64,000 bases of DNA from Silurus meridionalis (Eukaryota > Chordata > Actinopteri > Siluriformes > Siluridae), in the NCBI RefSeq assembly GCF_014805685.1, contig NC_060893.1:1-64000 (forward strand), read 5' to 3'. A model generated the notes under the pieces. The model worked only from the letters and a program-made list of their open reading frames with translations. It was not told the DNA's origin and searched no databases. How positions within the stretch are numbered: position 1 is the first letter of the stretch; every line of letters begins with the position of its first letter. This document shows, piece by piece, positions 1 to 47,734 of this stretch. The translations under genes and the position numbers were made by a program.

Positions 1-1458
1 ATTCACGCCAGCCAGTGCAAACGAGTGCCAGACCCGGAACAGGGGTTGATGGGAGACGGGAAAGTGAGAACACTTCACATAGGAACTCTGGTGTCGCTGG
101 ACCTCGTGAGGTGGGAGAAGGCGCCGTTTAGGTGCTTAAGTCGCACCTGCCCTTCAAGCACCAATAACGCCAAGAATAGGAAAGGTGTCACCAGACCAGA
201 TCTAGGAGGAGAAATCTTGTGTCATGGATCTAATATTAGTGCTGGAGTCGCCTTTCTGTTCTCACCTAATGTTAAACACAAATCTTCTCCCAGGATGAGG
301 TAGAAGCAGGTAGACTCTCATAGTGAGAGCTGAAATCAACCACTTCAATGTTTTGTTTGTAAATATTTCTGCTCCTAACACAGGGTCAGAGAGGGTGAAG
401 CTTTTCTCTAAGTTAGAGAAGGTTAGAGAAGAAAACACCAGTAGAGGGACTTTATTCTCCTGGGGGGAGACCACATGCTGAATCAGCAAGAGTAAGAACT
501 AAATCCCTGAACTTCTCAGACAGATGGAGAGAAAACAACCCACAAACACGTCAGTACACGTGGGTGAAGTTCCACACAGGCAGGGTTTCTGCAGCACGTT
601 TAGACATGTTCTACATATCACACACACCATGAGGAACACGCTCACACACTCTGATCTTCTCCCTACACCACTTTCAGACCATAAACTAATCCCAGTCGAG
701 TGCACACTAATAACAAGAACACAGAAGCTCCTACTGGCATTTCAGTCATAAACTTTACAGGAAAAAACATTGTGTGAAAACTGCAAACACTTTTGGAAAG
801 AATGGAAGAAAGAGAAGAAGAGGTTTAAATGTGTTGAATCTATGAGTCAGTGGTGGGAGATCGGGAAAGTGCATGTGAAGTGTATTGAGGCTTAAAGCAC
901 TTGTGGACGTCACGGGCGTCTGCTCGATGCTGCACATGGAAATGTAAACACTTTGTTTATGGCCCCAAATCTACAAAGAGCAGGAAAGATACTCAGCTAC
1001 TACTGAACTTTTTATTTGGGGAAGTGAAATGATCATATGATTGTGTAGAAAAGGAAGTGAAATGGAAAAGAATGAACTGAATTGATGCTGTTTTTAGGGG
1101 TTTAATACAAACACGAGTAAAAATCCAGTTCGTATATCAGCAGATGTTCAGGAACATGGAAACTTTTCAGTGCAAATGGGAAATAAATGAATGTATTTGT
1201 GATGTTGATCATGACGGCTTTCTGCAACTTACAGTTTCAATTCAATCAAATGTTTCAACTTTTTAAAATGTTTTTTAACTTTTAGCAATAAAGAGACATA
1301 AAAGTTTCTCCTCCCTCCCTCTCTCTCTTTCTCTCTTCCTTTCTTCCTCTCTCTCCCACTCCCCCCCTCTTCCTCTCTCTTTCTGGTGAAAAGAACACAC
1401 AGAATGTGTAATGTGTAGAAACTGAGAGAGTGAAGTGTGTGTCATTGTGTATCTGCAG
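1..1458. other. No gene recognised; CT-rich tract near the end
   Basis: I find no recognisable domain, splice-framed exon or repeat family here. Several short open frames exist (for example 25-303 on the plus strand), but they show no family motifs and I do not call them genes. A low-complexity CT-rich tract lies at about 1305-1382. The stretch ends in the intron acceptor (CTGCAG) of the LRR exon that begins at 1459, so at least its last part should be NLR-gene intron. Confidence 0.5.
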
Positions 1459-1632
1459 GTTGTATAATTGTGGAGTATCAGATGAAGGCTGTGCTGCTCT
1501 CGCTTCAGCTCTGAGATCAAACCCCTCACACCTGAGAGAACTGGATCTGTCTGGGAATAAAGTAGGAGACTCAGGAGTGAAGTGTCCCTCTGCTCTGAAG
1601 GATGATAATCATTACAAACTACAGACACTGAA
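1459..1632 (+). CDS. Single leucine-rich-repeat exon of a fish NLR (NLRC3-like) gene
   Basis: This is a 174-bp exon (58 codons) with an acceptor CTGCAG just before it and a GTGAGT donor at 1633. The peptide carries the typical NLR LRR pattern: CGVSDEGCAALASAL, then LRELDLSGNKVGDSG, then a KLQTLK end. Fish NLR genes encode their LRRs in repeated exons of this length and phase, and the LRRs act as the sensing arm of cytosolic innate immune receptors. The exon starts with the third base of a codon and ends after two bases of one, as expected for a unit that can be tandemly duplicated. No NACHT, FISNA, further LRR or B30.2 exon is seen in the window. It may be the last LRR exon of a gene starting upstream of base 1, or an orphan relic. 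Residues around 'KVGDSGVKCPSAL' depart slightly from the usual pattern. Confidence 0.82.
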
Positions 1633-1650
1633 GTGAGTAATAATCTGTTT

Positions 1651-1695
1651 TAAATAAACACTAATGTAGTAAATAACACTGATGTAGTAAATAAC

Positions 1696-1698
<3 letters not shown>
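1651..1698. repeat. Left remnant of the 18-bp minisatellite
   Basis: These are copies of the unit AATGTAGTAAATAACACT (G/A variants at the first base) directly before the TTC run that ends the antisense RTE LINE. The same unit continues at 4829, so the LINE inserted into one original array. Confidence 0.85.
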
Positions 1699-1726
<28 letters not shown>

Positions 1727-1739
1727 TCGGCTGCTCCCA

Positions 1740-3665
1740 TTAGGGGTCGCCACAGCGGATCATCCGTCTCCATACCACCCTGTCCTCTACATCTGCCTCT
1801 TTCACACCAACTACCTGCATGTCTTCCATGAACCTCCTCCTTGGCCTTCCTCTTTTCCTCCTACCTGGTGGCTCCATCTTCAACATTCTTCTACCAATAT
1901 AATTCATGTCCCTTCTCTGCACATGTCCAAACCATCTCAATCTCGCCTCCCTCACCTTGTCACCAAAACATCCTACGCTGTCCCTCTAATAAACTCATTT
2001 CTAATCTTGTCCATCCTCGTCACTCCCAACAAAAACCTTAACATCTTCAGTTCTGCTACCTCCAGCTCTGCCTCCTGACTTTTACTCAATGCCACTGTCT
2101 CTAATCCATACAACATCAGGTCTCACCACAGTCCTATAAACTTTCCTTTCATTCTTGCAGATACCCTACTATCACAAATCACTCCTGTCACTCTTCTCCA
2201 CCCACTCCACCCTGCCTGCACTCTTTTCTTTACTTCTCTAACACACTCTCCATTACTTTGCACTGTTGACCCCAGGTACCTGAACTCCTCCACCTTCTCC
2301 ACCTCTTCTCCTGCAACCGCATTACTCCACTGCCCTCCCTCTCATTCACACACATGTACTCTGTCTTACTCCTACTGACTTTCATTCCCCTTCTCTCCAG
2401 CGCATATCTCCACCTCTCCAGGTTCTTCTCAACCTGCTTCCTACTCTCACCACAAATCACAATATCATCTGCAAACATCATAGTCCAGGAGACTCCTGTC
2501 TGACCTCGTCCGTCAACCTGTCCATCACCACTGCAAACAGGAAAGGGCTCAGGGCCAATCCTTGATGCAGTCCAACCTTCACCCTGAACCAGTCTGTCGT
2601 ACCTACTGCACACTTCACTGCTGTCACACTGTCCTCATACATGTCCTGCACCACCCTCACATACTTCTCTGACACACCTGACTTCCTCATACAATACCAC
2701 AACTCCTCTCTTGGCACTCTGTCGACGCTTTCTCTAAATCCACAAATACACAATGCAATTCCTTCTGTCCTTCTCTATACTTCTCCATCAACATCCTCAA
2801 AGCAAATAAGGCATCTGTGGTGCTCTTCCTCGGCATGAAACCATACTGTTGCTCACAGATGGTCACCTCTTCTCTCAGCCTGGCTTCCACTACTCTTTCC
2901 CATAACTTCATGGTGTGACTGATAAACTTAATTCCCCTGTAGTTACTGCAGGTTTGCACTTCTCCCTTATGCTTAAAGATCGGTACCAGCACACTCCTTC
3001 TCCATTCCTTAGGCATCTCTCACCTTCCAGAATCCTGTTAAACAATCTGGTTAAAAACTCCACTGCCATCTCTCCTAAACATCTCCACGCCTCTACCGGT
3101 ATGTCATCTGTTCCAACCGACTTTCCATTCTTCATCCTCTTAATCGCTGCTCTCACTTCCTCCTTACTAATCCTATCTACATCCTGCTTCACCAACTCCA
3201 CGTCCTCCAACCTTCTCTCTCTGTGATTTTCCTCATTCATCAGCTGCTCAAAATACTCCCTCCACCTTCTCAACACACTCTCCTCACTAGTCAACACATT
3301 TCCTCTCCATCCTTTATTGCTCTAACTTGCAGTACATCCTTCCCAGCTCGGTCCCTCCGCCTGGCCAAACGGTATAAATCCTTTTCTCCTTCCTCAGTGT
3401 CCAACCTCTCATACAGCTCCTCATATGCCTTTTCCTTGGCTTTCGCCACATCCCTTTTTACCTGCTGCCGCATCTCCTTGTACTCCTGCCTACTTTTCTC
3501 ATCACTCTGTCGATCCCACTTCTGTTTTGCCAACCTCTTTCCCCTAATGCTCTCCTGCACTTCCTCATTCCACCACCACGTCTCCTTGTCTTGCTTTCTA
3601 TTTCCAGATGTCACACCAAGTACTTTTCTAGCTGCCTCCTCATAACTCCTGCAGTAGTTCCCCAA
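1740..3665 (-). pseudogene. RTE LINE copy 1: linker, reverse transcriptase and C-terminus, multiply frameshifted
   Basis: The reverse transcriptase is spread over at least six overlapping frames: 3291-3665, 2908-3297, 2687-3016, 2478-2753, 2230-2613 and 1740-1955. Recognisable blocks are NGKSVGTDDIPVEAW, FKHKGEVQTCSNYRGIK, GLHQGLALSPFLFAVVMD and the catalytic FADDIVICGE near 2465-2495. The motif-A region (FVDLEKA) is damaged, reading into 'STECQERSCG' instead of the YDRVP seen in copy 2. The C-terminal frame ends with RRRFMEDMQVVGVKEADVEDRVVWRRMIRCGDP. Many independent frameshifts mark this as an old dead copy. Confidence 0.8.
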
Positions 3666-4013
3666 TCATTCGGCATCTCTTCACCACCACCGAGCCCCTG
3701 TCTGACCTCTTCCTGAACCTCACACTACACTCTTCCTCCTTCAGGTTCCACCATCTTATTCTTCTTTCAATCCTTACATTCCTCCTCTTCTTCTTCGCCT
3801 CCAAAACCATCCTACAGACCACCATCTGATGCTGTCTAGCTACACTGTCCCCCGCCAACACCTTACAGTCCCCAATCTCCTTCAGGTTGCATCTCCTGCA
3901 TAGCACATAGTCCACCTGTGTGCACCTTCCTCCACTCTTATACGTCACCCTATGATCCTCCTTCTTCTTAAAATACGTGTTCACCACTGCCATTTCCATC
4001 CTTTTAGCAAAAT

Positions 4014-4712
4014 CTACCACCATCTGCCCTTCCACATTCCTCTCCTTAAAACCATACCTACCATCACCTCCTCATCACCTCTGTTCCCTTCACCTACATG
4101 CCCATTAAAGTCTGCCCCAATCACCAATCGTTCTTTCCTAGGTACACCATCTACCACTTCATCTAATTCACTCCAGAATCTTTCCTTTTCCTCCATCTCA
4201 CAGCCACCTTGTGAAACATAGGCACTGATGACATTTATCATCATCCCTTCAACTTCCACCTTCACGATCATCACCCTATCAGAAACTCTCTTCACCTCCA
4301 CTACACTCTTACTGTACTCTTCCTTCAGAATCACCCCTACACCATTTCTCTTCCCATCCACACCATGATAAAACAGTTTAAATCCACCTCCAATGTTCCT
4401 GGCCTTACTCCCTTTCCACTTGGTCTCCTGAACACACAGCATATCTACCTTTCTCCTCTCCATCATATCAGCTATCTCTCTCCCTTTACCCGTCATAGTA
4501 CCAACATTTAAAGTACCAACCCGAACCTCTACTCTCCTACACTGCTCCTTTTCCTGCCGTCTCTGTAGACGTCTTCCTCCTCTCCTTCTCCTCCTTCGGC
4601 CAACAGTAGCCCAATTTCCACCGGTACCCTGTTGGCTAACGATACATGTGGCGGTCGTTGTTAACCCGGGCCTCGACTGATCCGGTATGAAATTCTCCTT
4701 TGTGATCCGCAT
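4014..4712 (-). pseudogene. RTE LINE copy 1: endonuclease domain
   Basis: This is the N-terminal reading frame of copy 1. It has a basic, Arg-rich leader (RRRRRRGGRR), then the APE endonuclease blocks: VGTLNVGTMTGKGREIA, VDMLCVQETKWKG, and the catalytic-core-like VIGADFNGHVGEG. The ATG at 4712 is simply the first in the open stretch. The frame breaks near 4020 and the endonuclease continues in another frame (3640-4035, with HRVTYKSGGRCTQVDY and ARQHQMVVCRMVL). It is therefore a non-functional remnant that would have nicked target DNA to prime reverse transcription. Confidence 0.8.
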
Positions 4713-4828
4713 ATTTGATTTGGCACATGTTTTACGCTGGATGCCCTTCCTAACGCAACCCTCCCCATTTACCCAGGCTTGGGACCGGCACTAAGAGTGC
4801 ACTGGCTTGTGCCTCCCTAATGGCTGGG

Positions 4829-5058
4829 TTAATGTAGTAAATAACACTAATGTAGTAAATAATACTGATGTAGTAAATAACACTAATGTAGTAAATAACA
4901 CTAATGTAGTAAATAACACTGATGTAGTAAATAACACTGATGTAGTAAATAACACTGATGTAGTAAATAACACTAATGTAGTAAATAACGCTGATGTAGT
5001 AAATAACGCTGATGTAGTAAATAACACTGATGTAGTAAATAACACTGATGTAGTAAAT
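4829..5058. repeat. 18-bp minisatellite, about 12.5 units
   Basis: Tandem 18-bp units (AATGTAGTAAATAACACT, with A/G variation at position 1 and occasional C-to-G) run from the 5' end of the RTE LINE to about 5058. The array ends in an inverted half-copy (TTACATTAGTGTTATTTA at 5060-5077), giving a small hairpin. The unit length is a multiple of three and lacks stops in some frames, so long spurious ORFs arise on both strands (NNTDVV on the plus strand). I do not regard these as genes. Confidence 0.92.
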
Positions 5059-5077
5059 ATTACATTAGTGTTATTTA

Positions 5078-7600
5078 TTAGATGATGATCATCATATTTT
5101 ATTCTACAAATATTGGCTTTCCTGTAAGCAGCTGGTTTCCTCACTCGGACAGTGCTTTTATCTCTCCACCTCCACACCGTGTCTTCTATCATTCCTGTAA
5201 AATTCCCCTCAGCTTGTTCTGAAAGTCTGCACTTTAATATCCATGTGGAACAAGAGAGAAGCTCCACAGCAGTGATCTTTATTAAAAGCAGTAAAAACTC
5301 TAAAGCCTGGGATTGGAAAAGTGCAGTGATGTGATGCAAATATCTGCTCATGTTCCTCTTCCATCTTCTGCACCTTCTCATTTGTTCTCACTAAATGTTC
5401 TACCAAAGATATTATATAAGCATGAAGAAATGTTGAAGGACAAATGATCCACTGGAATCAAATCCTGGTTTCCTTGAAGCAGAGATAATTACCTGCTGCT
5501 GATCATCAAACACCTCCTTCTAGTTTTCTGTTACTGATTCACTTCTTTCTCTTCTAGATTTAGATGGTGATGAACAATTGTGTGTGAAGACTCCAGTGCA
5601 TTTCCGTGTCTGCAAACCGAGAACACGTTTATCTACAGGATCTGAGGAGTTGATGTGAAAAAGCCCAGAGCAGAAGGAGTCCAAATCACATGTATTACTT
5701 TGTGCTTTAGTTAGTATTTAATAGAGTTTCTTTCTTTATGCTACAGGATCAGACCCAATCCAATCTTTATTTTCTCTCTTATCTGATCTCCATTTCTTAC
5801 TAGTGTCAGGTGATCAACCCAGTATGGGATCAGTGCCATCTGTATTGCGCGCACACACACATTTACATACACTTCAGAAAAAAACACAAACTTTTATTTC
5901 TTTACTGTCATACATTAAATCAGAATAAACTTTTTCTGTTTTAAATCAGAAAAAGGTGGTCTGGGTTTTACTTCCGGTTTGATCGGGTACGCTGGCGCTT
6001 TTTGGCTGCCGCTCCTTTCGCCGTTTGTTTGTTTTCTCTGTTGTTGTTGGAGTTAACCTGCTGATTTTAAAACGTATTTTAGTAATGTTGCGGGTCTTCT
6101 TCAGTCTCCCTGGATTATGGTTTTAAGGTACACCATTCTACCCCCCTCCCCCTCTATTTCTTTTCCCTTTATACTCAGAGTTACCAAACTTGCTGTGATA
6201 CACCTACACAAGTAATAATGTATGTGTAAAATACTACATTTAATCTAACGACATGGACAGCTGTATTATTTAGGGGGGTATTATTTAGGCAAGCTGAATG
6301 TTTATTTTTCTTCCATAAACAAATCTCTGTCAAATAAAATTAAACAAAGTTTCACTTTTTTTTATTTTTTTATTTGTGTGCTGTCTTTGGTTTGCAAAGC
6401 ATTAAATACGATTTTGTGATTCTGTAAAATAAATAAATGTATAAGTATTAATTGAATATTAATGGACAAAGTCGAAAGTAAGATATTTTCTAATAGTTTG
6501 GAAGGTTTACCAATGCAATACTAAAAAAAAATAATACAGCTATGCTTTTTAAAAGTTATTTCAACCTCGCTGTACTTGCTGTTCAATTTAAAGTGTCATG
6601 TTTTATCCAACACCCGATCACATGAAGGATTGACCAATCAGGATGCCTCGGGTTCGGGGATGCCGTGTGCCAAAGAGAAGGCACAAAACAGTAGGAGTTT
6701 TACCTGTGTAATTAGAAATCCCCCCTCCCTACCCCCATTGTTAAAGCAAACACCTCTGAGTAGAATATTTTATTCCTCTTTCCATCTCAAAATAAAAGCA
6801 AACAACAACACAACAAGTATAGGAATCACTTTGAGAGATTTGTGTATGTGTTGTGTACACTAGAGGATATTGTGCTCCTAAACACTATTCACATTTTTTG
6901 GTTTGTCAGCTATGGTAGCTTATCACAGCTTTGCAAATCTTACGTAAAACAAAAGTGATAGTATTTCCTTTTTTTCCAATTATTTACATTATTTTATTTA
7001 TTTATTTGTATATTTATTTATTTATATTAAAATGTGTCAGGCTATCTTGAATTTAATTGAATAATGAATAATGAATAAATCACATTAATATGTTGTAACA
7101 TTTAAAGGTCCTTTCTGTGTTAGTCTACATCAAGGGGAAAACATTTAATTGTTACACTTTTGTTACCTTTGGATGTAAACATTTTAAGATGTTACACTTT
7201 TTTTTTTACCATCATACTATCAATTAGTAAAACAAGATGTAGAAATCTATGCAAAAAAAAAAAAAAAACCCTGTTGACAGCCAACCCTTATTTATTCATT
7301 TGTGCTTTTTGGTCTGTAGATTATAGATCCTACAATGTATAGTGCTATTGTAATCTACAAAACAGGCGGTGGAGATCCTCTGGGATTATTCAAGGACCAG
7401 AAGTCAAATTTTCGCAAAAAAAACTGCTATTTTTGACATTGAAGTTATTTTGACATAAGACTATGTGATAAATCAATATTGTTCTTTTTAAAACCCTTTT
7501 GCAATGTAAAATGTAGCTGTATATTATTATATTCCATTAGGATCATTTAATAGAGGCCTGTTATTTTTATAATTCTTTTTTACACAATTTGTTTTACATT
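5078..7600. other. No gene recognised
   Basis: I see no domain or complete repeat here. A possible acceptor (CTTCTAG) at 5551-5557 precedes a tract that, spliced in phase to the LRR exon at 1459-1632, would end after three codons (FRW stop). That could be an NLR terminal exon, but support is weak. A relatively GC-rich 60-bp stretch at about 5965-6030 (TTCCGGTTTGATCGGG) could be a first exon or promoter region for the downstream integrase-protease gene; this is a guess. The rest is AT-rich with poly-A/T runs (for example 7197-7206 and 7252-7268). Confidence 0.4.
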
Positions 7601-7604
7601 GTTT

Positions 7605-7732
7605 GACAACACCTTGATGCTGTTATGTTTGGACTAAGGACCAAAAAACAGATGACGACAAAGTTCTCTCCTTTTTATATGATGTTTGGTCGTGAGGCAC
7701 GATACCCTTCTCAGGTCCCAGAAGATGATCAG
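7605..7732 (+). pseudogene. Integrase catalytic-core C-terminal exon
   Basis: The frame reads HLDAVMFGLRTKKQMTTKF then SPFYMMFGREARYPSQVPE, which matches the end of the retroviral/gypsy integrase core (the SPF-x-x-MFGR-x-AR-P block that follows the catalytic Glu helix). The exon ends in CAG with a GTGGGT donor at 7733, phase 0, and joins cleanly to the exon at 8048. The upstream acceptor is not obvious, and the exons carrying the D, D and E catalytic residues are not visible in the window. Confidence 0.65.
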
Positions 7733-8047
7733 GTGGGTTGTCTTCTATGTTCTATGTTTGTTTAATTTTTAATTGTATGTATCGCATTCAGTATGAACTT
7801 TGACCAGCACAGAGTCACTTTAAACACTTTAATAGCAGCACATGGACAGTTCACACTGGGTTATACTTTAATAAACCCTTTTATACTTTCTTTTTATTTT
7901 ATGTTTTTACTTCTAAGTTGGACAGAGGTATAAAGGATTTCACTATGTCATATATGTATGTGACAAATAAAATGTGAATTTGAACTTGCCTGCATGAATT
8001 TGAGATGATCAGGTATTTTTAACTAGAACCAAATGTTCCATTTACAG

Positions 8048-9913
8048 ATCGACAGCTCAGTTGAAGCTGTGGTGGGAATTGAACAAATGACTGAGGACGT
8101 CCTGAAACTCAATGAAGTTCTTCAAACTGCACTCACCCACACTGCTCAGGTCCAAAAAAAAATGACAAATAAAGAATATAAAGCAAAGAAAGTGAAATTC
8201 TCTGTGGGTGACAAGGTGTGGAGATGTAATGTTCAGAGCCAGCAGAGAAAAGGTGGAAAATTAGATCCAACTTTTTTAGGTCCATACACAATTAAAGACA
8301 TTAAAGGCAAGAATGCTGATCTGATAGATGAGAGAGGGGTTATTTTGCCAAGAATCAATATTGACCACTTAAGATTATATATTGAGGAGATGCCACGCAT
8401 TCCACACAAGATTGTATCCAGATCAACAGACGCAAATCCATCACAAAAAACCTGTCCAACTGCTGAATCACCTGCAATCTCAAAAGTGACAGTCATGTCA
8501 CCACCGCTGTATCTGTTCCACCATCACCTGCAATCTCCAAAAGAGCTGCATCACCTGCCTCACCAAGGGTTTCACCATCACCTAACATCTCCAAAAGAGC
8601 TGCATCACCTGTCTCCCCAAGGGTTTCACCATCACCTGTCATCTCCAAAAGAGCTGCATCACCTGTCTCCCCAAGGGTTTTACCATCACCTGCCATCTCC
8701 AAAGAGCTGCATCACCTGTCTCCCCAAGGGTTTCACCATCACCTGCCATCTCCAAAAGAGCTGCATCACCTGTCTCCCCAAGGGTTTTACCATCACCTGC
8801 CATCTCCAAAAGAGCTGCATCACCTGTCTCCCCAAGGGTTTCACCATCACCTGCCATCTCCAAAAGAGCTGCATCACCTGTCTCAACAAGGGTTTCACCA
8901 TCACCTGCCATCTCCAAAAGAGCTGCATCACCTGTCTCCCCAAGGGTTTCACCATCACCTGCCATCTCAAAGAGCTGCATCACCTGTCTCCCCAAGGGTT
9001 TCACCATCACCTGCCATCTCCAAAAGAGCAGCATCACCTGTCTCCCCAAGGGTTTCACCATCACCTGCCATCTCCAAAAGAGCAGCATTACCTGTCTCAA
9101 CAAGGGTTTCACCATCACCTGCCATCTCCAAAGAGCTGCATCACCTGTCTCCCCAAGGGTTTCACCATCACCTGCCATCTCCAAAGAGCTGCATCACCTG
9201 TCTCAACAAGGATTCACCATCACCTGCCATCTCCAAAAGAGCTGCATCACCTGTCTCCCCAAGGGTTTCACCATCACCTGCCATCTCCAAAAGAGCTGCA
9301 TCACCAGTCTCCCCAAGGGTTTCACCATCACCTGCCATCTCCAAAAGAGCTGCATCACCTGTCTCAACAAGGGATTCACCATCACCTGCCATCTCCAAAA
9401 GAGCTGCATCACCTGTCTCCCCAAGGGTTTCACCATCACCTGCCATCTCCAAAAGAGCTGCATCACCTGTCTCAACAAGGGTTTCACCATCACCTGCCAT
9501 CTCCAAAAGAGCTGCATCACCTGTCTCGCTAAGGGTTTCACCATCACCTGCCATCTCCAAAAGAGCTGCATCACCTGTCTCCCCAAGGGTTTCACCATCA
9601 CCTGCCATCTCCAAAAGAGCAGCATCACCTGTCTCAACAAGGGTTTCACCATCACCTGCCATCTCCAAAAGAGCTGCATCACCTGTCTCAACAGGGGTTT
9701 CACCATCACCTGCCATCTCCAAAAGAGCTGCATCACCTGTTTCCCCAAGGGTTTCACCATCACCTGCCATCTCCAAAAGAGCTGCATCACCTGTCTCAAC
9801 AAGGGTTTCACCATCACCTGCCATCTCCAAAAGAGCTGCATCACCTGTCTCTGTATCTGTGTCATCATCACCTACCACTAGAGCAAAAGCGGTACAGCAC
9901 CACCTCATCAGCA
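8048..9913 (+). pseudogene. Integrase C-terminal (GPY/F-like) domain followed by coding minisatellite
   Basis: The acceptor is TTTACAG at 8041-8047. About the first 120 codons form the integrase C-terminal region: VKFSVGDKVWR, then KLDPTFLGPYTIKDI with the GPY motif of the GPY/F module, then ADLIDERG and RINIDHLRLYIEEMP. From about 8470 the exon becomes an 18-codon tandem repeat. In the frame that splices in phase to the protease exons it reads SPSPAISKRAASPVSPRV, a Ser/Pro-rich and basic linker. The exon ends after AGCA with a GTAAGT donor at 9914. The first half is in one frame and the end is in another (offset 2), and single-base A-run losses in several units (such as near 8698, 8968, 9130 and 9182) change frame repeatedly. 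Confidence 0.65.
8500..9855. repeat. 54-bp coding minisatellite, about 25 units
   Basis: The unit is about 54 bp, running from TCACCATCACCTGCCATCTC through AAAAGAGCTGCATCACC to TGTCTCCCCAAGGGTT. Units differ mainly by TCCCCA/TCAACA before AGGG and by the length of one A run. Unit-to-unit identity is high, which suggests recent expansion or gene conversion. All three forward frames and two of the three reverse frames are stop-free, which explains the many long overlapping ORFs here. Confidence 0.93.
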
Positions 9914-10081
9914 GTAAGTCAGCAGAAGAAGAGCTATAAACTAATGAAAGTTAACAGTCATGTTTTCTCATACTTATTCTTTTCTTATGACATTTATCAG
10001 TACAGTTGTTCAAGAGGCATGTGCAGGAATAAATGCCTGTGTTGCTTTCTGGAATTGGGCCGTATAAAATATTTTTTGCAG

Positions 10082-10122
10082 ACGTTAACAAAACCGCTCC
10101 GAGTAACGAGTTTGAAAGTGAG
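10082..10122 (+). pseudogene. Linker exon of the integrase-protease gene
   Basis: This 41-bp exon lies between a TTTTTTGCAG acceptor and a GTAAGA donor at 10123. Joined to the last base of the repeat exon it reads NVNKTAPSNEFESE in phase. Confidence 0.5.
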
Positions 10123-10225
10123 GTAAGATTTATTTTGCATTTTAAAATGTTTTGTGGTTGAAACTGTAGATATCAAATGTTAGCATCCACTGCTAACCCC
10201 ACACTGTTTTGTTTCCTTGTGTAAG

Positions 10226-10348
10226 GTTATTAATGCATACATATTTCTTCTTGTGAGGCGTTTCAACGCACAACCAAAAGAGCAGGCATTCCAAATTGAC
10301 TCGTATGAAATGACGAAAATTTGGAATGGAAACAAATCCAAATTAAAG
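10226..10348 (+). pseudogene. Start of Ulp1-like protease region
   Basis: This 123-bp exon (41 codons, phase 0 at both ends) has an acceptor GTAAG and a GTCGGT donor. It reads VINAYIFLLVRRFNAQPKEQ, followed by AFQIDSYEMTKIW. The 'VINAYIFLL' opening corresponds to the part of C48 peptidases where the substrate-binding helix ('INxYL/I') begins. Confidence 0.5.
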
Positions 10349-10429
10349 GTCGGTTTGCTCGGGTTTATTTATGTACCGATTATGAAACATTAAATTTGAA
10401 CATATTTCAGTCCTCTTTTCAAATTTCAG

Positions 10430-10495
10430 GTTGATTCCACAATGTACAAGTATCTCATTGGCATTGTGAATGACCACCACCACTGGACAGATGTG
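10430..10495 (+). pseudogene. C48 protease exon with catalytic His
   Basis: This 66-bp exon (22 codons, phase 0) lies between TTTCAG and GTAAAC. It encodes YLIGIVNDHHHWTDV, in which HHHW corresponds to the catalytic His-Trp of Ulp1/SENP-type proteases (the usual N-x-H-W pattern). Confidence 0.65.
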
Positions 10496-10904
10496 GTAAA
10501 CAAATGAAGTGTTCTTAGACATTATATTTTAAATCTTGGAAATAACTTCCAATATTGTGTTCTGCATACTGTATGCCATTTGATTAAATGTTAGGTGGTA
10601 AACTTTTAAGCTTCTTTTTTAAGGTAGATTTACCAAAATAACTAACAGTTAATATTAAAAGAAACAACTAATGACCAGAGTAAATGGGGCAGATAAGTGA
10701 AGGATGTAGCTGTTACAGCAAGTGCAAAACAAGGTGTCTGGAGAATCTACAAAGCAAAGTAGATTCCTTCAAAAAGAGGTTGTTTAACTTTTTATTATAA
10801 TGTTTATGAAGCCATTTTACCTACAAGAAATTGTTCATATTAAATGCATTTTAATCTCTTTATTATCTAAAATCTAAATTCATTACTGTTTAAAATCTTA
10901 AACG

Positions 10905-10993
10905 GTTGTGCTGCCATCTTAAAGGATGGCTTTGCTCTTAGATCCTCTGGGAGAAAGTTCAGCAAAACTGAGACAATGCCAGGATGTAACGAG
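10905..10993 (+). pseudogene. C48 protease exon with catalytic Asp; in-frame stop
   Basis: The frame reads VVLPS, a TAA stop at 10920-10922, then RMALLLDPLGESSAKLRQC. LDPLG matches the catalytic Asp block of C48 peptidases. Phase 0 entry from the previous exon needs a start at 10905, but the two bases before it are CG rather than AG. The donor is GTATTT at 10994, leaving two codon bases that complete correctly in the next exon. Confidence 0.58.
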
Positions 10994-11101
10994 GTATTTG
11001 AAGTTGTTCATCCCAAAAATGTGCTTCTGTACAAAATTCATCTCTACAGGAAAATGACTTATTTCAGTATCACAATCATGATGATTGTGCAATTTTTCAA
11101 G

Positions 11102-11171
11102 GTGGTCCTGCGATACACTGCCTCACCCAAAACAGCAAGATGGCACATCATGTGGCATCTTTGCTTTGAAA
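11102..11171 (+). pseudogene. C48 protease exon with catalytic Gln and Cys
   Basis: This 70-bp exon lies between TTTTTCAAG and GTAAGT. Completing the split codon, it reads RWSCDTLPHPKQQDGTSCGI, then FALK. The QQDGTSCG block is the Gln/Cys active-site signature of Ulp1-like cysteine proteases. It is intact here and in phase with the exons on both sides. Confidence 0.72.
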
Positions 11172-11278
11172 GTAAGTGATGAACTTATGATCTTGAAAAA
11201 GGACAATTAAGTTGGTAATTATAGTGTTTTATTTCCCTTTATAATGAAATTGCTTCTTTTATTATTTTCCTCTTCTAG

Positions 11279-11359
11279 TTTGCTGAATTTGTATTTAGAG
11301 AGGAGCCAATTGTTTTAATTAACACAAAAGAAGAAGTGGAAGACTTAAGAAAGAAATAG
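11279..11359 (+). pseudogene. Terminal C48 exon
   Basis: The acceptor is CCTCTTCTAG at 11269-11278. The exon reads FAEFVFREEPIVL then INTKEEVEDLRKK and stops (TAG at 11357). FAE continues directly from the FALK of the previous exon, as in C48 proteins. The bases after the stop read like a continuation in a shifted frame (AVTLLQNS), so a 1-bp deletion near 11352 may have created this stop. Confidence 0.6.
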
Positions 11360-11439
11360 CTGTCACTCTTCTCCAAAACAGTGGTATGTGTAATGTACAG
11401 TATCAGTCGTAACATTACTGTTTTAAATATTGTTAAAAG

Positions 11440-11850
11440 AAGAATCTTATTTTCATCAAGCCTGCATTTATTTGATCAAAAATAAACTGAAATATAAAAA
11501 AATAATGTGTTGTGAGATGCTATACAAATGTAAAATAATGGTTTTGTATTTTAATATATTATAAAATATCATTTATTCCTATGATGCAAAGCCGAATTTT
11601 CTTCAGCTGTTACTGCAGATTAAAACGTCACACAAGCCTTTAGAGTTCATTCTAATATTCTGATTTATTATCAATGGTGGAAACAGTAGTGCTGATTATA
11701 TGTGTGTATGTATATAATTTTATTTATTTATTATTATTAATTTTTTTTTAAGAGAATACACTACAAGTTTGGGTCAGTGTTGAATTTTTCTTTTTTTGTT
11801 TTGAAAATATAGAATACTTTTTTCAGCAAGGACGTGTAAAATAAATAAAA
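11440..11850. repeat. Degraded non-autonomous DNA-transposon-like repeat
   Basis: The blocks TGCATTTATTTGATCAAAAA, ATTTATTCCTATGATGCAAAG, TCATTCTAATATTCTGATTT and 'CAAGTTTGGGTCAGT' are words I recognise from a very abundant short fish repeat (often annotated as a non-autonomous hAT-like element). This copy is diverged and its termini are not clear. The class assignment rests on memory. Confidence 0.45.
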
Positions 11851-12077
11851 AGTGATTGTGAAGGCTTATAATTTTAGAAAAGATTTCCATTTTAGATGGG
11901 GTTTTTTTTTTTTTTACATTCTTAAATTAATCCTGAACAAATCATAGCAGCCTCTAAAAAAAAGAGCACAACTGTTCATGATCAGCATTCAGCAGTAAGA
12001 ATGCCTGCCTCTTCTCTACATTTCCTCCCTAGTCATTAACTGCACATCCTTCTTAATCACCACACCTATCTGCCATC

Positions 12078-13434
12078 ATCATCATTTGCTCAACTCAGAT
12101 AAGACGGAAGAACTTTTACTAGGGCCACATGCAGCTAGAAATAAACTTTCTGATTCTGTAGCATCTCTGGATGGTGTTTCTGTTTCAGCATGTACGGCTG
12201 TCAAAGACCTTGGTGTGATTATTGACCCGAGTCTTTCCTTTGAGTCTCACGTGAATAATATCACCAGGATCTCCTTCTTTCACCTTAGAAATATTGCTTA
12301 AATTAGAAATATGATGTCGTTACAGGATGCAGAAAAACTAGTTCATGCTTTTGTTACTTCTAGATTAGACTACTGTAACGCTTTACTGTCTGGGTGTGTG
12401 AGTAAGTGCTTAGATCAAAAGGTGCAGGCTATTTGTTGGTACCTCAAATAATGAAGACTACAGCAGGGGGCAGATCTTTCTCTTATTAACCCCACAGTTA
12501 TGGAACAACCTTCCAATCAGTGTTCGGGACTCGGACACAGTCTCGTTCAAGTCGAGGTTGAAAACTTATTTATTTAGTCAAGCCTTTTATCAGTAGATTT
12601 TTCTTAGGTAAAGGCTCAGATCTGGAGGGAACATGGATATAGAGTGTTTGGTGAACTGGGATATTTGGATGCTGTCGTCTCCTCACTCTCACACGTTCAC
12701 TCTGGTTTGTTGACGATGGTGTGGTGGGTCGTCTCTTATCCCAGAGATCCCTCATGTCTGTGTTTCCTTCTGCTTCTCCCTTTTAGTTATGCTGCCATAG
12801 CGAGTCTTGCCGGAGTCCAAACTGCACAGTGACATTAACTTTCATACACCAATAGTTACACTTAATAATCCATATCCTTCTCTTCCGTCTCCTCTCTCTC
12901 TCCTCTCTCCTCTCTCTCTCTCTCTCTCTCTCGGTCGAGTTAAACATGCTCCTGAGGTTCCAGTGACCACTGTTCCTGCCCCTCTCCCCTCCGTGGATCT
13001 TCACACTTCTGTGCAGCTTGGGACGGTCTCTCATCAATCACCTTGGGTGGTTCCATGTAATTCCGGAGTAGAACGGGTGCTTTGAGGACGGATTGGACTG
13101 TAGTTGGTTTTGGCGGTCTGCTGCACTGATCCGGGAGTGCAGTTTGCTTCTGATCATCATCACTGTACCCCGCAACATTGTATATCTGCTTCAAATGGAC
13201 ATTTGGTGCAACCCAGATGAGGATGGGTTCCCTCTTGAGTCTGGTTCCTCTCAAGGTTCTTCCTTATGCCATCTCGGGGAGTTTTTCCTTGCCACAGTTG
13301 CTCATCAGGGACAAACTTACTTACAAAGAACATATTTACATTTAATCACCACATTATCTGTGTAAAGCTGCTTTGAGACGATGTTCATTGTTAAAAGCGC
13401 AATACAAATAAAAATGAATTAAATTGAATTGAAT
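12078..13434 (+). mobile_element. L2-clade LINE, 5'-truncated 3' end
   Basis: The copy holds the C-terminal part of the L2 reverse-transcriptase ORF and the 3' UTR. Coding blocks are LNSDKTEELLLGPHAARNK, then VKDLGVIIDPSLSFESHVNN and ISFFHLRNIA (12086-12301), then remnants in other frames (LDYCNALLSG near 12365; NNLPISVRDSD near 12510). The 3' UTR ends with the usual 'AAGCTGCTTTGAGACGATGT', AATACAAATAAAAATG and a short (AATTG)n-like tail at about 13405-13434. It contains a (CT)n microsatellite at 12880-12935. Stop codons and indels make it a dead copy. Confidence 0.8.
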
Positions 13435-21323: not shown

Positions 21324-22000
21324 ATGGTGCAAGCACAACCACAAGTGGTGTATCAACCCCCGGCCCCGCTGATGGCGCCAGGAAATTATCAAATGGCTCC
21401 GCAGTATCAAATGGGACCCCAATATCCCCAACAAAGAGGATGGGGAAATCCCAGAGGAAGAGGAAGAGGTGCACTATGCAAATTAGGAGCTAAAATACAC
21501 TGTGGACCCACAGGAGTGTGGGTCACACTACCAGACGCAATCTCATCCCAGTATCCAGTACTATGGAGAAAGCGAGAAGAAGACTATCTGAAGCTAGATA
21601 AAGTCTACTGGCTGGAAATCTGGGAAAAGGGAAAATCAAATCTTTGGAAAACATTAAGTAAATGGAAGCCGTGGCTTCAACTCATGAGACCTGACTGCCG
21701 CAATGCTAGAGATCTATTACACTGCACAATGAAGTATGATGAGGGGGATCAGGATGAATAGAAGAATACAACAGACTATGGGATCAAACCCAAGAAGTGA
21801 GGATGTGGACTCAAGACAAAGGCCATAATCATAGGGCCAGAAGGAATGGCAGCTGAAGTCGAACTGCCAGACGAAATAAAAGAGTGGTATCAAGTGGACA
21901 ATGCAGCACCTCATGTCACTCTGATGATTGGGCAGAACTTTGAATCTAAAGACTTAGGGCCAATGGTCAGGAAGCACAAGGAGTACAAAAATGGAACTTA
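21324..22000 (+). pseudogene. Endogenous retrovirus: Gag end and protease/Pol junction
   Basis: The first part is Pro/Gln/Tyr-rich and ends in GWGNPRGRGRG, a nucleocapsid-like basic box. I see no intact CCHC zinc knuckle. From about 21820 another frame reads AIIIGPEGMAAEVELPDE and APHVTLMIGQNFESKDLGPM, a segment I associate with fish retroviral Pol between protease and RT. Protease itself is not recognisable. Stops and frame changes are present. Confidence 0.5.
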
Positions 22001-22018
22001 ACACACAACTCTAAGGTA

Positions 22019-22918
22019 GTGATTTCAGAAGATGGGAAATATCTGAAGATTAAAGAGGAAGCGGTAGAACAGGTAGTGGCAACCCAAGTGATAATAACTT
22101 CTAAAACAAAGAGTGAGGGACAGACAGAAAAAGGGGCACAAATGACTCTAGTACTAGGAGAACAGGAACTAGCAGGGCAGGAAAAGGAGGACGCCTTAAA
22201 AGAAATCCCTGACCAGCTGTGGACAAAACACGCCACAGACGTAGGATTAGTTAAGTCATCAGGACAAGTGCAGATTCAGGTTAAACCTGACGCCGTATTG
22301 CCTTACCAAAGGCAATGCCCTCTGTCACAACAAGCAGTAGAAGGGATAGGCCCAACAATAAAGGGGTTAGTAGAAGCAGGAGTACTGATCCCAACTCAGA
22401 GTTGCTGCAACACCCCCATTTTTCCGGTACGGAAGCCTAACTCGGATAAATGGAGACTAGTGCACGATCTGAGACCAATAAACCAAATTGTGATTGCTGA
22501 AACGCCAGTGGTCCCAGATCCTCACACTCTATTGTCTAATATTCCCGAAAGTACCCAATGGTACACAGTGATAGACTTATGCTCAGCATTCTTTAGTATC
22601 CCGCTGCACCCGGACTCACGCCATTTGTTTGCGTTCACTTATGGAGGCCAGCAGTATACTTATACCCGTCTACCCCAAGGGTACTGCGAAAGCCCATCAG
22701 TCTTTAACCAAGTATTAGCACATGACTTAAAAAACCTGCAGCTATCAAGCCGCCTCCTACAGTACGTAGATGACCTGCTCATCTGCTCAGAAACAAGGGA
22801 GCAATGTCTGAAAGATTCAATAACCGTGTTAAAAGCATTGGCAGAAAATGGGCATAAAGTAAGCAAGGAAAAACTGCAATTTTGCAGCAGAAAAGTAGAA
22901 TACCTGGGAGGGTATTAG
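22019..22918 (+). pseudogene. Endogenous retrovirus: reverse transcriptase
   Basis: About 300 codons of retroviral RT. Order of blocks: LPYQRQCPLSQQAVEGI, then NSDKWRLVHDLRPINQIV, TVIDLCSAFFSIPLHPDS (motif A, Asp kept), LPQGYCESPSVFNQVL (motif B), and LQYVDDLLICSETR with the catalytic YVDD at about 22763-22774. This is gamma/epsilon-like rather than gypsy-like. The frame ends at TAG 22916-22918, where a single-base change of frame would continue into the next segment, so the gene is broken here. Confidence 0.85.
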
Positions 22919-23637: not shown

Positions 23638-24286
23638 GCGGGGCGAATGGGTGACGACTCGGCGGCATACTCGCAAAGCCAAAGCTAACGCTAAGGCTCG
23701 CCCATAGGAGCACCATTCCTCTCCGCTTTGCGTGTCCAACAGGTTTGCTCTCCTCAGTGAAGCACCCGCTGAGAAACCTGAAAGAGCTCTGGTTTTAGGA
23801 GACTCCATTCTGAGGCACGTGAAATTAGCTAGACCTTTAGGGGCACCAGCAGCACAGGTTATGTGTATACCGGGAGCCAGGGCGCCGGACATAGCAGGTC
23901 AGCTTAGATTCTTAGGAAAGCACAGGTTCTTTAAGATAGTTTTTCACACAGGAGCTAATGTTATACGCCTTCGACAGTCAGAGGTTACTAAGAGTAATAT
24001 TATAGAGGTGTGTAAATTAGCGAAGGCAATGTCCGATGCTGTAATATGCTCTGGCCCCATCCAAATGCGACGTGGCGATGTAGCCTACAGCAGGTTATGG
24101 TCGCTGAACTGCTGGATGTCCAGGTGGTGCTCCAAAAATAATGTGGGCTTCATTAATAATTGGAACATTTTTGAGGGCAAGGCTGTCCTGTTAGGGCGGG
24201 ACGGTATCCATCCCACCCGGGAAGGTGCTGCTCTCATTTCTTGTAGTATAGGTAATAGTCTCAGAACAGCACTAGTTAACAAGTGA
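23638..24286 (+). pseudogene. L2/CR1-type LINE ORF1 fragment with SGNH esterase domain
   Basis: The fragment starts in a basic stretch (TTRRHTRKAKANAKARP, then a TAG stop) and continues as an SGNH-hydrolase: ALVLGDSILRHVKLARPLG with the GDSI nucleophile block (about 23798-23809), a degenerate GAN block (HTGANVIRLRQSE) and DGIHPTREG with the Asp and His of block V (24200-24217). Esterase domains of this kind occur in ORF1 proteins of CR1/L2-group LINEs, where they are thought to act in RNP or lipid interaction. No ORF2 follows, so this is an isolated 5' piece. Confidence 0.72.
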
Positions 24287-30338: not shown

Positions 30339-31341
30339 TTAATACTTTGTACAACCTCCTTTTGCCAACAAGACAGCACTTAATCTCCTCCTATAACATT
30401 TCACAAGATTGGAGAACACAGAGAGGGATTTTGACCATTCTTCTTTGCACAATCTATCTAGATCATCCAGTGTCCTGGGTCCTCTCTTATGCACTCTTCT
30501 CTTTAGCTCGCCCACAGGTTTTCGATTGGGTTGAGGTCTGGGGACTGAGATGGCCATGGGAGGACCTTGAGTTTGTGACTGCTGAACCACTTTTGTGTAG
30601 ATTTTGCCACATGTTTTGGATCATTATCCTGCTGAAAGACCCAATGACGACCCATCTTCAGCTTTCTGGCAGAGGCCATCAGGTTTTTATTTAAAATATC
30701 CTGGTACTTCAAAGCGTTCATAATGCCATGCACCCTAACAAGGTTCCCAGGGCCTTTGAAGAGAAACAGGCCCACAGCATCACAGATCCTCCACCATACT
30801 TCACGGTGGGCATGAGGTGCTTTCGGCATACTTATCTTTGTTTCGCCAGACCCACTTAGAGTGTTTGTTGCCAAAAGCTCAATCTTAGTCTCATCTGACC
30901 AAAGCACATGATCCCAGTTGAAGTCCCAGTACCGCTTAGCAAACTCAGACGTTTACATTTGTGAGTGTTAGTGAGAAAAGGCTTTTTCCTTGCATGCCTC
31001 CCAAACAGCTTGTTGGCATGTAGAGAGCGTCTGATAGTTGTTTTGGAGACTCTGTGACCCCAAGATGCCACTCTTTGATGCAATTCTGTGACGGTGAGCT
31101 TGGGAAATTTTTTTACTTCTCTTACCATCCTCCTCACTGTGCGTTGTGGCAAGATAAACTTGGGACCTCTTCCAGCCTTGTTTGTCACTGTTCCAGTTGT
31201 TTTAAACTTCTTAATGATTCCTCTGACTGTAGATACCGGCAAGTTAAGGCGAGTGGCTATTTTCTTGTAGCCATTGCCTGACTTATGAAGGTCGACACAC
31301 ACCTGCCTTACTTGAATGGTGTGTTCTCTTGTCTTTGCCAT
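30339..31341 (-). pseudogene. Tc1 transposase, frameshifted
   Basis: The start is the ATG at 31341 (MAKTREHTIQVRQVCVDLHK). The N-terminal paired-like helix-turn-helix domains include YKKIATRLNLPVSTVRGIIK and KTTIRRSLHANKLFGRHARK. The DDE catalytic domain follows in a second frame: LWSDETKIELL (first Asp), QQDNDPKHVAKSTQKW (second Asp) and PWPSQSPDLNPIENLW (Glu, 34 residues after the second Asp by the usual count). The C-terminus is in a third frame, ending CYRRRLSAVLLAKGGCTKY at 30339. Two frameshifts (about 30900 and 30520) inactivate it. Such transposases cut and paste the element at TA sites. Confidence 0.9.
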
Positions 31342-31713
31342 GTTGACAAATGGGTAAGAGAATTAGGCCTCTGTGTCACGTTATATTTATACCCCAGGGA
31401 AACAGGAAATCATGAATTACTAATTAAAAGTCCCTAGATATCCTGACCAACCTTATTTTGGTCATTTTTCAGCAACTACAGAAAAATATATAAAAAAAAA
31501 AAAAAAAAAAAAAATTAAATTTTTCAGAGGAATTGTTAGGGGTGCCAATAATTGTAGGACACATGATTTCAAGTTTTTTTTTTTTTCTAAATGTAAATGA
31601 TTTTTCTCTTTTTTTGCATTTGGGTTCTATGTTGTTTTAAAAAAAAGGAGAATTTTTTGAAGTCCACGACCACATCTTAAACAGGGGTGCCAATAATTGT
31701 GGAGGGCACTGTA

Positions 31714-34913: not shown

Positions 34914-34967
34914 AGGAGATTGAGACTGTAAGGTGTTGGCGGGGACAGTGTAGCTAGACAGCATCGG

Positions 34968-42126: not shown

Positions 42127-42578
42127 AGAGTCAAGCCAAGAAGCTTTTATTGTCATTTCAACCATATATATCTGTTGCAGTACACAGTGAAATTAAACAA
42201 CGTTCCTCCAGAACCCAGGTACTCCATAAAACAACAGTCACAGAAACAGAAAAACACAGGGCTAAGAACTAGTAGAAAGATCTTTGCCACATAAAGTGCA
42301 TGTGTGCAACTAGTGCAAACAGTGCAAAAAGACAACACAGGACAGTGCAGGACATTACACAAAACAAGAAAATGCTCTGCCAGTAAACCTGTCGTAACAG
42401 AATAAGGTGCACAGTAGCAGAAAAAACGGAAAAATGTAAACAGAATATTGTGCAATTAAACAAATATATTAGCAATCCTGGAAGATGTGCAAACAGCATG
42501 TAATGATTTAGTGTGAGTGGTACTGAGTCATGGGTGTGCGAAGTGTATGATGTGTGTTGAGTACAGATCAGTCACACA

Positions 42579-42643
<65 letters not shown>

Positions 42644-42712
42644 TAAACACGCAGATCGTCGCCGGGAGTCTTACCGCACAGACCTGCATTTCTGTCGGTA
42701 GAAACAAAAAAA
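42127..42712 (-). mobile_element. Internally deleted derivative of the 47.9-51.4 kb LINE family
   Basis: On the minus strand the fragment starts with a piece of the endonuclease ORF (GACAGAAATGCAGGTCTGTG, then CGGTAAGACTC, matching 48360-48390). It jumps directly into the (AC)n tract and 3' UTR of the same family (matching about 50793-51420), and ends CTTGGCTTGACTCTTG at 42127. About 2.4 kb of ORF is missing between the two parts. It contains a (GT)n microsatellite at 42582-42637. It cuts the L2 at 42126. Confidence 0.78.
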
Positions 42713-42739
42713 AATAATACAATTGAACTGTAATCCGGC

Positions 42740-43788: not shown

Positions 43789-43993
43789 AGACTTTTTTTC
43801 CAGGTGAACTGGCCTCTTTTCTTTGTCCCAAAACTCTCTGAAACCCTGTATAAACGGGTCATTCTTTTGAAACTCAGCTAGCTGCTCTTTAGTGTAACCC
43901 GGAAGAGTATGAGTGTTCCCTTGGAGGCTGGTGACAGCCTCTTTACCGGCCTCTAATGCACGGATCTGCCTTAACCTGCCGCACTCTAGCCAT

Positions 43994-44605: not shown

Positions 44606-44609
44606 GCAT

Positions 44610-47364: not shown

Positions 47365-47734
47365 TTTTACACCAGTGGTTCAAATAGCATTAACTCACAA
47401 TTAGTTCAATTCAGTACGGTTCAGAATAATTGTCCTTAGGGCAAAACCCATCCAACCTTTTTAATCCTCTTCAGTACCTTCAACACACCCTCGCGTTGAT
47501 GCACAGTTCCTGGGTGTGGAGGAGAAATCCTGAAAGCTAATATGTCGACAGAAGGAAGCGCTTCAATAAGGACCAGTCTCTTCTGCCGAATTCCTGCTTA
47601 GTCCCACGATGACCACCTCGACGGAGATCCTCCACACTGCGGACGTTCTCCACCTCTGCAAAAATATTCACCACTGAAGTATTTGTCTACCCCCACTATG
47701 CCGCTCGTCATAAATGAGTCCGATTGAATAAACG

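What the first reader, a model, noticed from the sequence alone, without database searches (positions are those of the whole stretch)
7605..11359. Integrase joined to a repeat linker and a Ulp1/C48 protease in one spliced gene
The exons encode a gypsy-type integrase end with a GPY motif, then an 18-residue tandem repeat, then a C48 protease whose four active-site residues (HHHW, LDPLG, QQD, SCG) are on separate exons joined in one phase. A DNA-integration enzyme fused to a SUMO- or ubiquitin-like-specific protease is unusual. It suggests either a Ginger-like DNA transposon carrying a deconjugating protease or a host gene derived from one. I saw splice sites, phases and motifs directly; the family name is inference from memory.
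Basis: partly seen in the sequence, partly recalled or inferred. Interest (0 to 1): 0.82.

Follow-up and report, generated by a model that had tools for sequence, protein, structure and literature searches.

The report
Dead Ginger1 transposon copy in fish
This is a broken copy of a known kind of jumping gene (Ginger1) in what looks like a fish genome; relatives of it join a DNA-integrating enzyme to a SUMO-type protease in one protein, a combination already described in 2010, so the finding is real but largely ordinary.

Summary
But this is a dead copy. Compared with siblings in the same genome it lacks both ends, has lost 1.3-1.5 kb (zinc finger and catalytic core) at a junction sharing 3 bp, and carries an in-frame stop, a lost splice acceptor and several frame breaks. 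The TAG taken as the gene's end follows a frame break. The four protease residues lie on three exons, not four.

A sibling on contig C27 has 200-bp inverted repeats (197 identical), starts TGTTG and has CCGG on both sides: published marks of Ginger1 DNA transposons, whose transposases carry OTU or Ulp1 domains (Bao 2010). Relatives, mostly fish gene models, hold integrase and C48 in one protein (14 of 74 by motif). The C48 model of one matches SENP1, SENP2 and Ulp1.

Possibly new, and modest: more introns than published (six here, up to twelve in a sibling) and a linker that is a tandem repeat in 21 of 30 relatives, with units differing between them.

The parts
6144..12084 (+). Remnant of a Ginger1 element: the span that aligns to sibling copies in the same genome. 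Both terminal inverted repeats are missing; a LINE-like fragment (by eye) follows at 12085.
   Evidence: BLASTN against loci L039-L047: 5' homology starts at w6135 (C6b), w6144 (C9) or w6149 (C27), later in other copies; 3' homology ends at w12084 in C6a, C6b, C27 and C9. Beyond either end only matches of E 0.09 or worse.
7323..7421 (+). First coding exon remnant (N-terminal region before the zinc finger). The start codon reads ATA here; sibling C6a reads ATG.
   Evidence: tblastn of P0010 residues 1-33, 51.5%, E 6.8e-6; codon; C6a MDPTIYSA....
7608..7610 (+). Junction of an internal deletion (zinc finger and DDE core lost), with 3 bp (AAC) shared by both sides.
   Evidence: Between the two flanks C6a has 1,474 bp, C6b 1,476, C10 1,312, C1 1,298, C27 1,294; no convincing catalytic-core match in w4801-8100.
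7607..7732 (+). Exon A: end of the integrase core (HLDAVMFGLRTKKQ...FGREARYP).
   Evidence: 94.9% identical to P0003 over 39 aa; spliced alignment.
7733..8047 (+). Intron, GT-AG, phase 0.
8048..8514 (+). Exon B: SH3-like module with the GPY motif at 8279-8287, then the start of the linker; frame break near 8487.
8515..9851 (+). 54-bp tandem array, 24.9 copies, the linker between integrase and protease; 4 of 24 unit spacings are 52 or 53 bp.
   Evidence: TRF; unit lengths; seven siblings have 2.9 to 9.9 copies of a 54-bp unit.
10039..10122 (+). Exon C, aligned part: conserved block before the protease (VLLSGIGPYKIFFADVNKTAPSNEFESE); a frame break lies just upstream (by eye).
10226..10348 (+). 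Exon D of the C48 domain.
10430..10495 (+). Exon E of the C48 domain with the catalytic His motif HHHW (10475-10486).
10496..10904 (+). Intron whose acceptor is lost (ends CG, not AG).
   Evidence: sibling C6a ends TAAAAG at the same place.
10905..10993 (+). Exon F of the C48 domain with LDPLG (10938-10952) and an in-frame TAA (10920-10922).
   Evidence: sibling C6a reads VMLPSQRRALFLDPLGE without a stop.
11068..11171 (+). Exon G of the C48 domain with both QQD (11133-11141) and SCG (11148-11156); frame break at 11087.
11279..11382 (+). Exon H: frame break at 11351; the TAG at 11357-11359 lies after it.
   Evidence: sibling C6a reads on to EIAVTLLQNS.

Best explanation
The locus is a dead, end-truncated and internally deleted copy of a Ginger1 cut-and-paste DNA transposon in what appears to be a teleost genome. 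In full relatives one gene makes a transposase: N-terminal region, H2C2 zinc finger, DDE integrase core, GPY/F module, a linker that is often a tandem repeat rich in proline, serine, threonine and alanine, a SENP/Ulp1-like C48 protease and, in some, a PHD finger. Inferred working: the integrase part binds the inverted repeats and inserts the element at CCGG, leaving a 4-bp duplication. The protease, on its flexible tether, most likely removes SUMO from the transposase or from host silencing or repair factors at the donor or target site. Shown here: architecture, ends and flanking CCGG of one sibling copy, catalytic motifs in relatives, predicted fold, lesions. Not shown: transposition, protease activity, substrate, transcription. 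The copy in the window can do none of this.
Against: Only one copy has both ends in hand, and it is itself defective (internal duplication; part of the C48 exons missing). The window copy has no ends, so its membership rests on DNA identity to siblings. Six introns in the window, up to twelve in C6a (some doubtful), and an 8.1-kb copy exceed the 0-4 introns and 2.6-7 kb of Bao. 34 of the 62 homologues show no C48 match and 31 no rve match, among them the nearest, P0003, without C48; many are partial gene models. Some lesion calls depend on alignment penalties. The role of the protease is inference.
Confidence: 0.94

Rival explanations
1. A domesticated host gene (like GIN1 or GIN2) derived from a Ginger1 transposase, with the integrase inactivated and the protease kept.
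For: Protease motifs HHHW, LDPLG, QQD and SCG survive; heavier penalties give a path with one frame break or none in the C48 part; Ginger1-derived host genes exist in vertebrates (PMC3424704 passages).
Against: In-frame stop, lost acceptor, frame breaks and lost start codon; at least eight similar dispersed copies; the path with fewest lesions needs an added 12-nt exon. Selection was not measured.
Confidence: 0.03
2. A fragment of a Gypsy LTR retrotransposon whose integrase happens to lie beside an unrelated C48 gene.
For: Gypsy integrases share the GPY/F motif, and a separate Gypsy-type integrase sits at w42568-43539.
Against: Only 2 of 62 homologues show reverse-transcriptase RNase H domains, 28 carry C48; a sibling has TIRs and flanking CCGG; no direct end repeats in it and no match to three reverse-transcriptase or RNase H frames of the window in six element spans; the tree puts the window inside the family, away from the Gypsy rows, whose branches are very long.
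Confidence: 0.01
3. The lesions are assembly errors and the locus is an intact, active transposon.
For: Units of 52 or 53 bp in the array differ mainly in the length of an A run, a common error type (the last point recalled).
Against: A deletion of 1.3-1.5 kb with shared AAC, missing TIRs on both sides, a stop and a changed splice acceptor where sibling C6a has neither are not that type; the four siblings aligned also carry stops and frame breaks in the integrase part.
Confidence: 0.02

Closest known systems
Ginger1 DNA transposons with Ulp1 domain, e.g. Ginger1-4_HM to Ginger1-10_HM and Ginger1-12_HM of Hydra (Bao, Kapitonov and Jurka 2010, PMC2836005)
   Same: Integrase with H2C2 zinc finger, DDE, GPY/F and a C-terminal Ulp1 protease (Ginger1-9_HM also has PHD); TIRs, TGTNR ends, CCGG duplication.
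   Different: More introns (six in the window, up to twelve in sibling C6a; the 2010 table lists 0-4), a tandem-repeat linker in 21 of 30 relatives, and the only copy here with both ends is 8.1 kb. The window copy has no ends and no catalytic core. No Hydra sequence was compared here.
GIN1 and GIN2 vertebrate host genes
   Same: Derived from Ginger1-type transposases; GIN2 present in fish, with eight coding exons (PMC3424704 passages).
   Different: GIN2 sits at one conserved place; this family is dispersed in at least eight copies. The passages seen mention no Ulp1 domain in GIN2; not tested here.
SENP1, SENP2 and Ulp1 SUMO proteases
   Different: About 20% identity; part of a transposase; activity and substrate unknown.
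Mutator-like transposons with Ulp1 domains (named in PMC2836005 passages)
   Same: A DNA transposon that carries a Ulp1-type protease.
   Different: Different transposase superfamily; not compared here.

Membership tests
Ginger1 (family, through sibling copies) | 4-bp CCGG or CCGT target duplication | tested here: met
   CCGG on both sides of the C27 copy; CCGG before the 5' end of the C9 and C10 copies. Only one copy has both sides.
Ginger1 (family, through sibling copies) | TIRs of about 40-270 bp | tested here: met
   C27 copy: 200 bp, 197 identical.
Ginger1 (family, through sibling copies) | TGTNR ends | tested here: met
   TGTTG...CAACA.
Ginger1 (family, through sibling copies) | H2C2 zinc finger and DDE core | tested here: met
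   Sibling C6a encodes HASSIGAHCGQ, WPGMSEDLDKW, CVACQ, LTDQGREF and NGLVERMN, with breaks; 31 of 62 homologues match rve and 24 Integrase_H2C2.
Ginger1 (family, through sibling copies) | GPY/F motif | tested here: met
   LGPYTI in the window and in C6a.
Ginger1 (family, through sibling copies) | YPYY motif before the zinc finger | tested here: inconclusive
   Relatives show KYP...F...LYY in the right region, judged by eye; no published model was run.
Ginger1 (family, through sibling copies) | C-terminal OTU or Ulp1 domain | tested here: met
   Peptidase_C48 in 28 of 62 homologues and in the window.
Ginger1 (family, through sibling copies) | Length about 2.6-7 kb | tested here: inconclusive
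   The only copy with both ends spans 8.1 kb but has an internal duplication and a deletion.
Ginger1 (the window copy itself) | Own TIRs and target duplication | tested here: not met
   Both ends are missing. It is a remnant, classed by identity to siblings.
Ginger1 (the window copy itself) | Catalytic core | tested here: not met
   Deleted at w7608-7610.
Host gene GIN1/GIN2 | Single conserved locus with open frame | tested here: not met
   At least eight dispersed copies, broken frame. Synteny not tested.
Gypsy LTR retrotransposon | LTRs and reverse transcriptase with the integrase | tested here: not met
   Inverted end repeats in C27, no direct ones at E 1e-3; no tblastn match of two Gypsy and one other reverse-transcriptase or RNase H frame in six element spans, with a working control; 2 of 62 homologues show such domains.
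SENP/Ulp1 SUMO protease | C48 profile, catalytic motifs and fold | tested here: met
   Window 34.8 bits against 20.7; 23 of 74 proteins HDQC and 5 HNQC; fold of relative P0010.
SENP/Ulp1 SUMO protease | Cleaves SUMO | not testable with these tools
   Needs an enzyme assay.

The most novel reading that the evidence does not exclude
The integrase-protease linker of fish Ginger1 transposases is a hypervariable in-frame minisatellite: unit length and sequence differ between relatives (5 to 27 residues; 17 of the 21 repeat linkers are over 55% P, S, T and A), and the number of 54-bp units ranges from about 3 to 25 among eight copies in this genome. Such a linker could work as a fast-changing disordered tether that sets the reach of the SUMO protease and might escape host recognition.
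Probability: 0.25. Interest if true: 0.4.

Novelty: new member of a known kind. Interest (0 to 1): 0.2.

Why it matters
It places an intron-rich Ginger1 family with a SENP/Ulp1-like protease, with ends and flanking CCGG seen in one copy, in what looks like a teleost, and suggests that fish gene catalogues carry these transposases under misleading names (myosin-1, cortactin, proteoglycan 4-like and others). It would make the 2010 proposal that SUMO or ubiquitin removal helps transposition testable in a vertebrate family. The window locus itself is a decayed copy.

Tried and rejected
TIR search inside the window: one chance-level pair without target duplication; its core TGTTACACTTT is no commoner than in shuffles (4 matches, 19 of 100 shuffles reach that). 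PHD exon downstream of w11382: only weak hits (E 0.004 on the other strand; E 0.03 at w11448, in what I recall as a common cyprinid repeat), rejected. Catalytic core elsewhere in w4801-8100: no hit better than E 0.28; the tblastn hits at w42.7-43.7k are a separate Gypsy. Searching the genome with PF02902 gave 8 matches, none in the window, presumably because exons are scored apart; one of five queries aligned, over the SCG exon alone, to L001, L002, L004 and L006 of the eight loci, so I take these as host SENP genes, unverified. The C48 homology search gave only 2 proteins; the integrase-tail search was the useful one. The nearest relative P0003 has no C48; its last residues look like a shifted frame of the block before C48, so that copy may be broken too (by eye). 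Exon skips: 7 of 105 gaps of 12 or more residues outside the linker have both ends at intron positions mapped from the window, a minority that supports shared introns. No Hydra Ginger1 sequence was compared. A genome-wide count of TIRs was not obtained. One search printed nothing (wrong option) and was redone.
Full report
What was checked. The finding claims that w7605-11359 encodes, in one spliced gene, a Gypsy-type integrase end with GPY, an 18-residue repeat and a C48 protease. The window is the first 64 kb of contig C10 of a 742.6-Mb genome in 285 contigs. Of the 62 nearest proteins 60 carry a fish name, so I take it to be a teleost (inference; the species is not known to me).

The observation. 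The DNA does contain all three pieces. A spliced alignment of w7290-8520 and w9851-11800 to a profile from 16 relatives recovers exons A (7607-7732) and B (8048 on), then C to H of the protease part, with GT-AG introns at 7733-8047, 10123-10225, 10349-10429, 10994-11067 and 11172-11278, plus an intron 10496-10904 that ends in CG. A further intron between array and exon C is likely (GTAAGT at w9914, by eye) but was not aligned. Scores are 440 and 387; the best of 40 random stretches of the same window scores 36 and 44. Pfam gives Peptidase_C48 at 34.8 bits (cut-off 20.7) and for the integrase tail only a sub-threshold SH3_Tf2-1 match of 17.7 bits (cut-off 30). The tail itself matches 62 proteins. 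The array is 54 bp by 24.9 copies. Coordinates of the motifs were re-read from the DNA.

Corrections to the observation. QQD and SCG are on the same exon, so the four residues lie on three exons. The LDPLG exon is preceded in frame by TAA and by no AG. The array is out of frame with the integrase because of a break near w8487; in sibling C6a it is in frame and its unit reads SPSPAISKRAASPVSPRV, while other copies vary. Four of 24 unit spacings in the window are 52 or 53 bp. The TAG at 11357-11359 lies after a frame break; the family sequence continues to w11382. Further frame breaks sit just before w10039 (by eye) and at w11087. Not all lesion calls are independent of settings: with stronger penalties the aligner finds a path with one break or none, but only through an added 12-nt exon and poorly matching pieces. 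Sibling C6a shows the same exon F with an AG acceptor and no stop, which favours the reading with lesions.

Siblings and ends. A DNA search of the same genome with w7290-8510 (48 matches; 40 of 74 candidates scored, so a lower bound) finds copies on C6 (two), C1, C4, C10, C9 and C27, 84-96% identical by piece, a 77% piece on C26 and a short 87% piece on C11. I fetched nine stretches. BLASTN shows that the window's homology runs from about w6144 to w12084. Where the window has a junction sharing AAC at w7608-7610, C6a has 1,474 bp, C6b 1,476, C10 1,312, C1 1,298 and C27 1,294. In C6a this stretch encodes the zinc finger and the DDE core: HASSIGAHCGQ, WPGMSEDLDKW, CVACQ, LTDQGREF, NGLVERMN. So the window copy has lost its catalytic core by an internal deletion. 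The C27 copy carries 200-bp inverted repeats (197 of 200 identical) and ends CCGG|TGTTGTGCC...GGCACAACA|CCGG; the C9 and C10 copies also begin CCGG|TGTTGTGCC. It has no direct end repeats, and reverse-transcriptase or RNase H frames taken from the window find nothing in six element spans. The C27 copy is defective too: part of its 5' half is duplicated and w9930-10843 is missing. Four siblings were aligned in the integrase part (C6a, C6b, C1, C10); all four carry frame breaks (4, 6, 2, 2) and stops (2, 1, 1, 2). Two were aligned in the C48 part: C6a has one broken splice site, C6b one stop. C4, C9, C27, C26 and C11 were not aligned this way, so an intact copy elsewhere is not excluded.

The family. 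Of 62 homologues, 31 match rve, 28 Peptidase_C48, 24 Integrase_H2C2 and 17 PHD. Of 74 proteins (P0001, P0003-P0075; P0002 left out) 28 match the whole C48 motif pattern (23 HDQC, 5 HNQC), 26 all three DDE motifs, and 14 both, one of them with Asn for Asp. Several species have many entries: Labeo rohita 11 and Chaenocephalus aceratus 7 over the listings (the latter shows 120 of 428), as expected of a mobile family. A tree of the integrase tail (56 rows: the window, 52 of the 62 homologues, two further Gypsy proteins and the window's own Gypsy) puts the window beside Xyrauchen texanus P0003 (99/95); the Gypsy rows have very long branches, so the depth of the tree is not to be read.

The linker. 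In 30 proteins with both flanking blocks, 21 have a tandem repeat in the linker stronger than in any of 100 shuffles, with units of 5 to 27 residues that differ between relatives (some rows are near duplicates, and one repeat, P0065, is probably read in another frame); 9 have none. Among eight copies in this genome the 54-bp unit occurs about 3 to 25 times. I saw no mention of this: in the Ginger paper 'tandem repeat' and 'linker' have no occurrence (search listing). That search and those are all that I did, so I claim only that I did not find it.

What is known. Bao, Kapitonov and Jurka (PMC2836005; parts 1-2 of 5 read, plus passages) define Ginger1 by the zinc finger, DDE, GPY/F, a YPYY motif, TIRs of about 40-270 bp, TGTNR ends, CCGG or CCGT duplications, and in nearly all a C-terminal OTU or Ulp1 domain, with 0-4 introns in their table. 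They already suggest that these proteases take part in transposition, for example through repair factors. Ginger elements are listed in zebrafish with 6,053 copies (PMC4746887, passage). GIN2 in fish is a host gene with eight coding exons at a conserved place (PMC3424704, passages). Relics of Ginger1 in other vertebrates are reported (PMC9004415, passage), and a domesticated one in crustaceans (PMC12863088, passages).

Mechanism. Most likely the intact protein is a cut-and-paste transposase that carries its own SUMO protease on a flexible tether and, in some relatives, a PHD finger (a chromatin reader by general knowledge). The protease may strip SUMO from the transposase or from silencing or repair proteins at the site. 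Architecture, ends and flanking CCGG of one copy, and predicted fold are shown; the protease's role is inference (I put about 0.35 on removal of SUMO-dependent silencing or repair control as its main job).

Verdict. Real, but a dead member of a known kind. Interest is low for the locus and modest for the linker and intron-rich structure.

Noticed in passing
window 4832-5059: 18-bp tandem repeat, 12.7 copies (ATGTAGTAAATAACACTG), beside the LINE-like frame.
   Followed up: no
window 2230-4790 (minus) and 34932-37050 (plus): Two LINE-like open-frame series of similar protein sequence (by eye) in opposite orientation about 32 kb apart; the first has an endonuclease domain (PF03372). In sibling C6a DNA 94.7% identical to w2688-4830 lies directly against the Ginger1 remnant.
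   Followed up: partly
window 21950-22918 and 23708-24286: Reverse transcriptase frame (PF00078) of a broken retrovirus- or retrotransposon-like element, followed by a GDSL-type hydrolase frame (PF13472); described only.
   Followed up: no
window 30856-31362 (minus): Tc1/Sleeping Beauty-type transposase remnant (HTH_SB, HTH_Tnp_Tc3_2).
   Followed up: no
window 42568-47379 (minus): Gypsy-type retrotransposon in several frames (by eye), integrase core at 42568-43539 (PF00665).
   Followed up: no
window 12085-13430: LINE-like fragment (by eye) directly after the Ginger1 remnant; its insertion or a deletion may have removed the element's 3' end.
   Followed up: partly
L044 (C27 copy), oriented 389-8506; L040 (C6b copy): Besides the 200-bp TIRs the C27 copy has further inverted blocks inside its ends (702-856 with 8104-8245, 87%); in C6b a block of about 170 bp near the 5' end is repeated four to five times and is also found inverted near the 3' end.
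   Followed up: no
proteins listed: Public fish gene models of this transposase carry misleading names such as myosin-1 isoform X3, cortactin, proteoglycan 4-like and arp2/3 complex-activating protein rickA-like, possibly because of the repeat linker.
   Followed up: no
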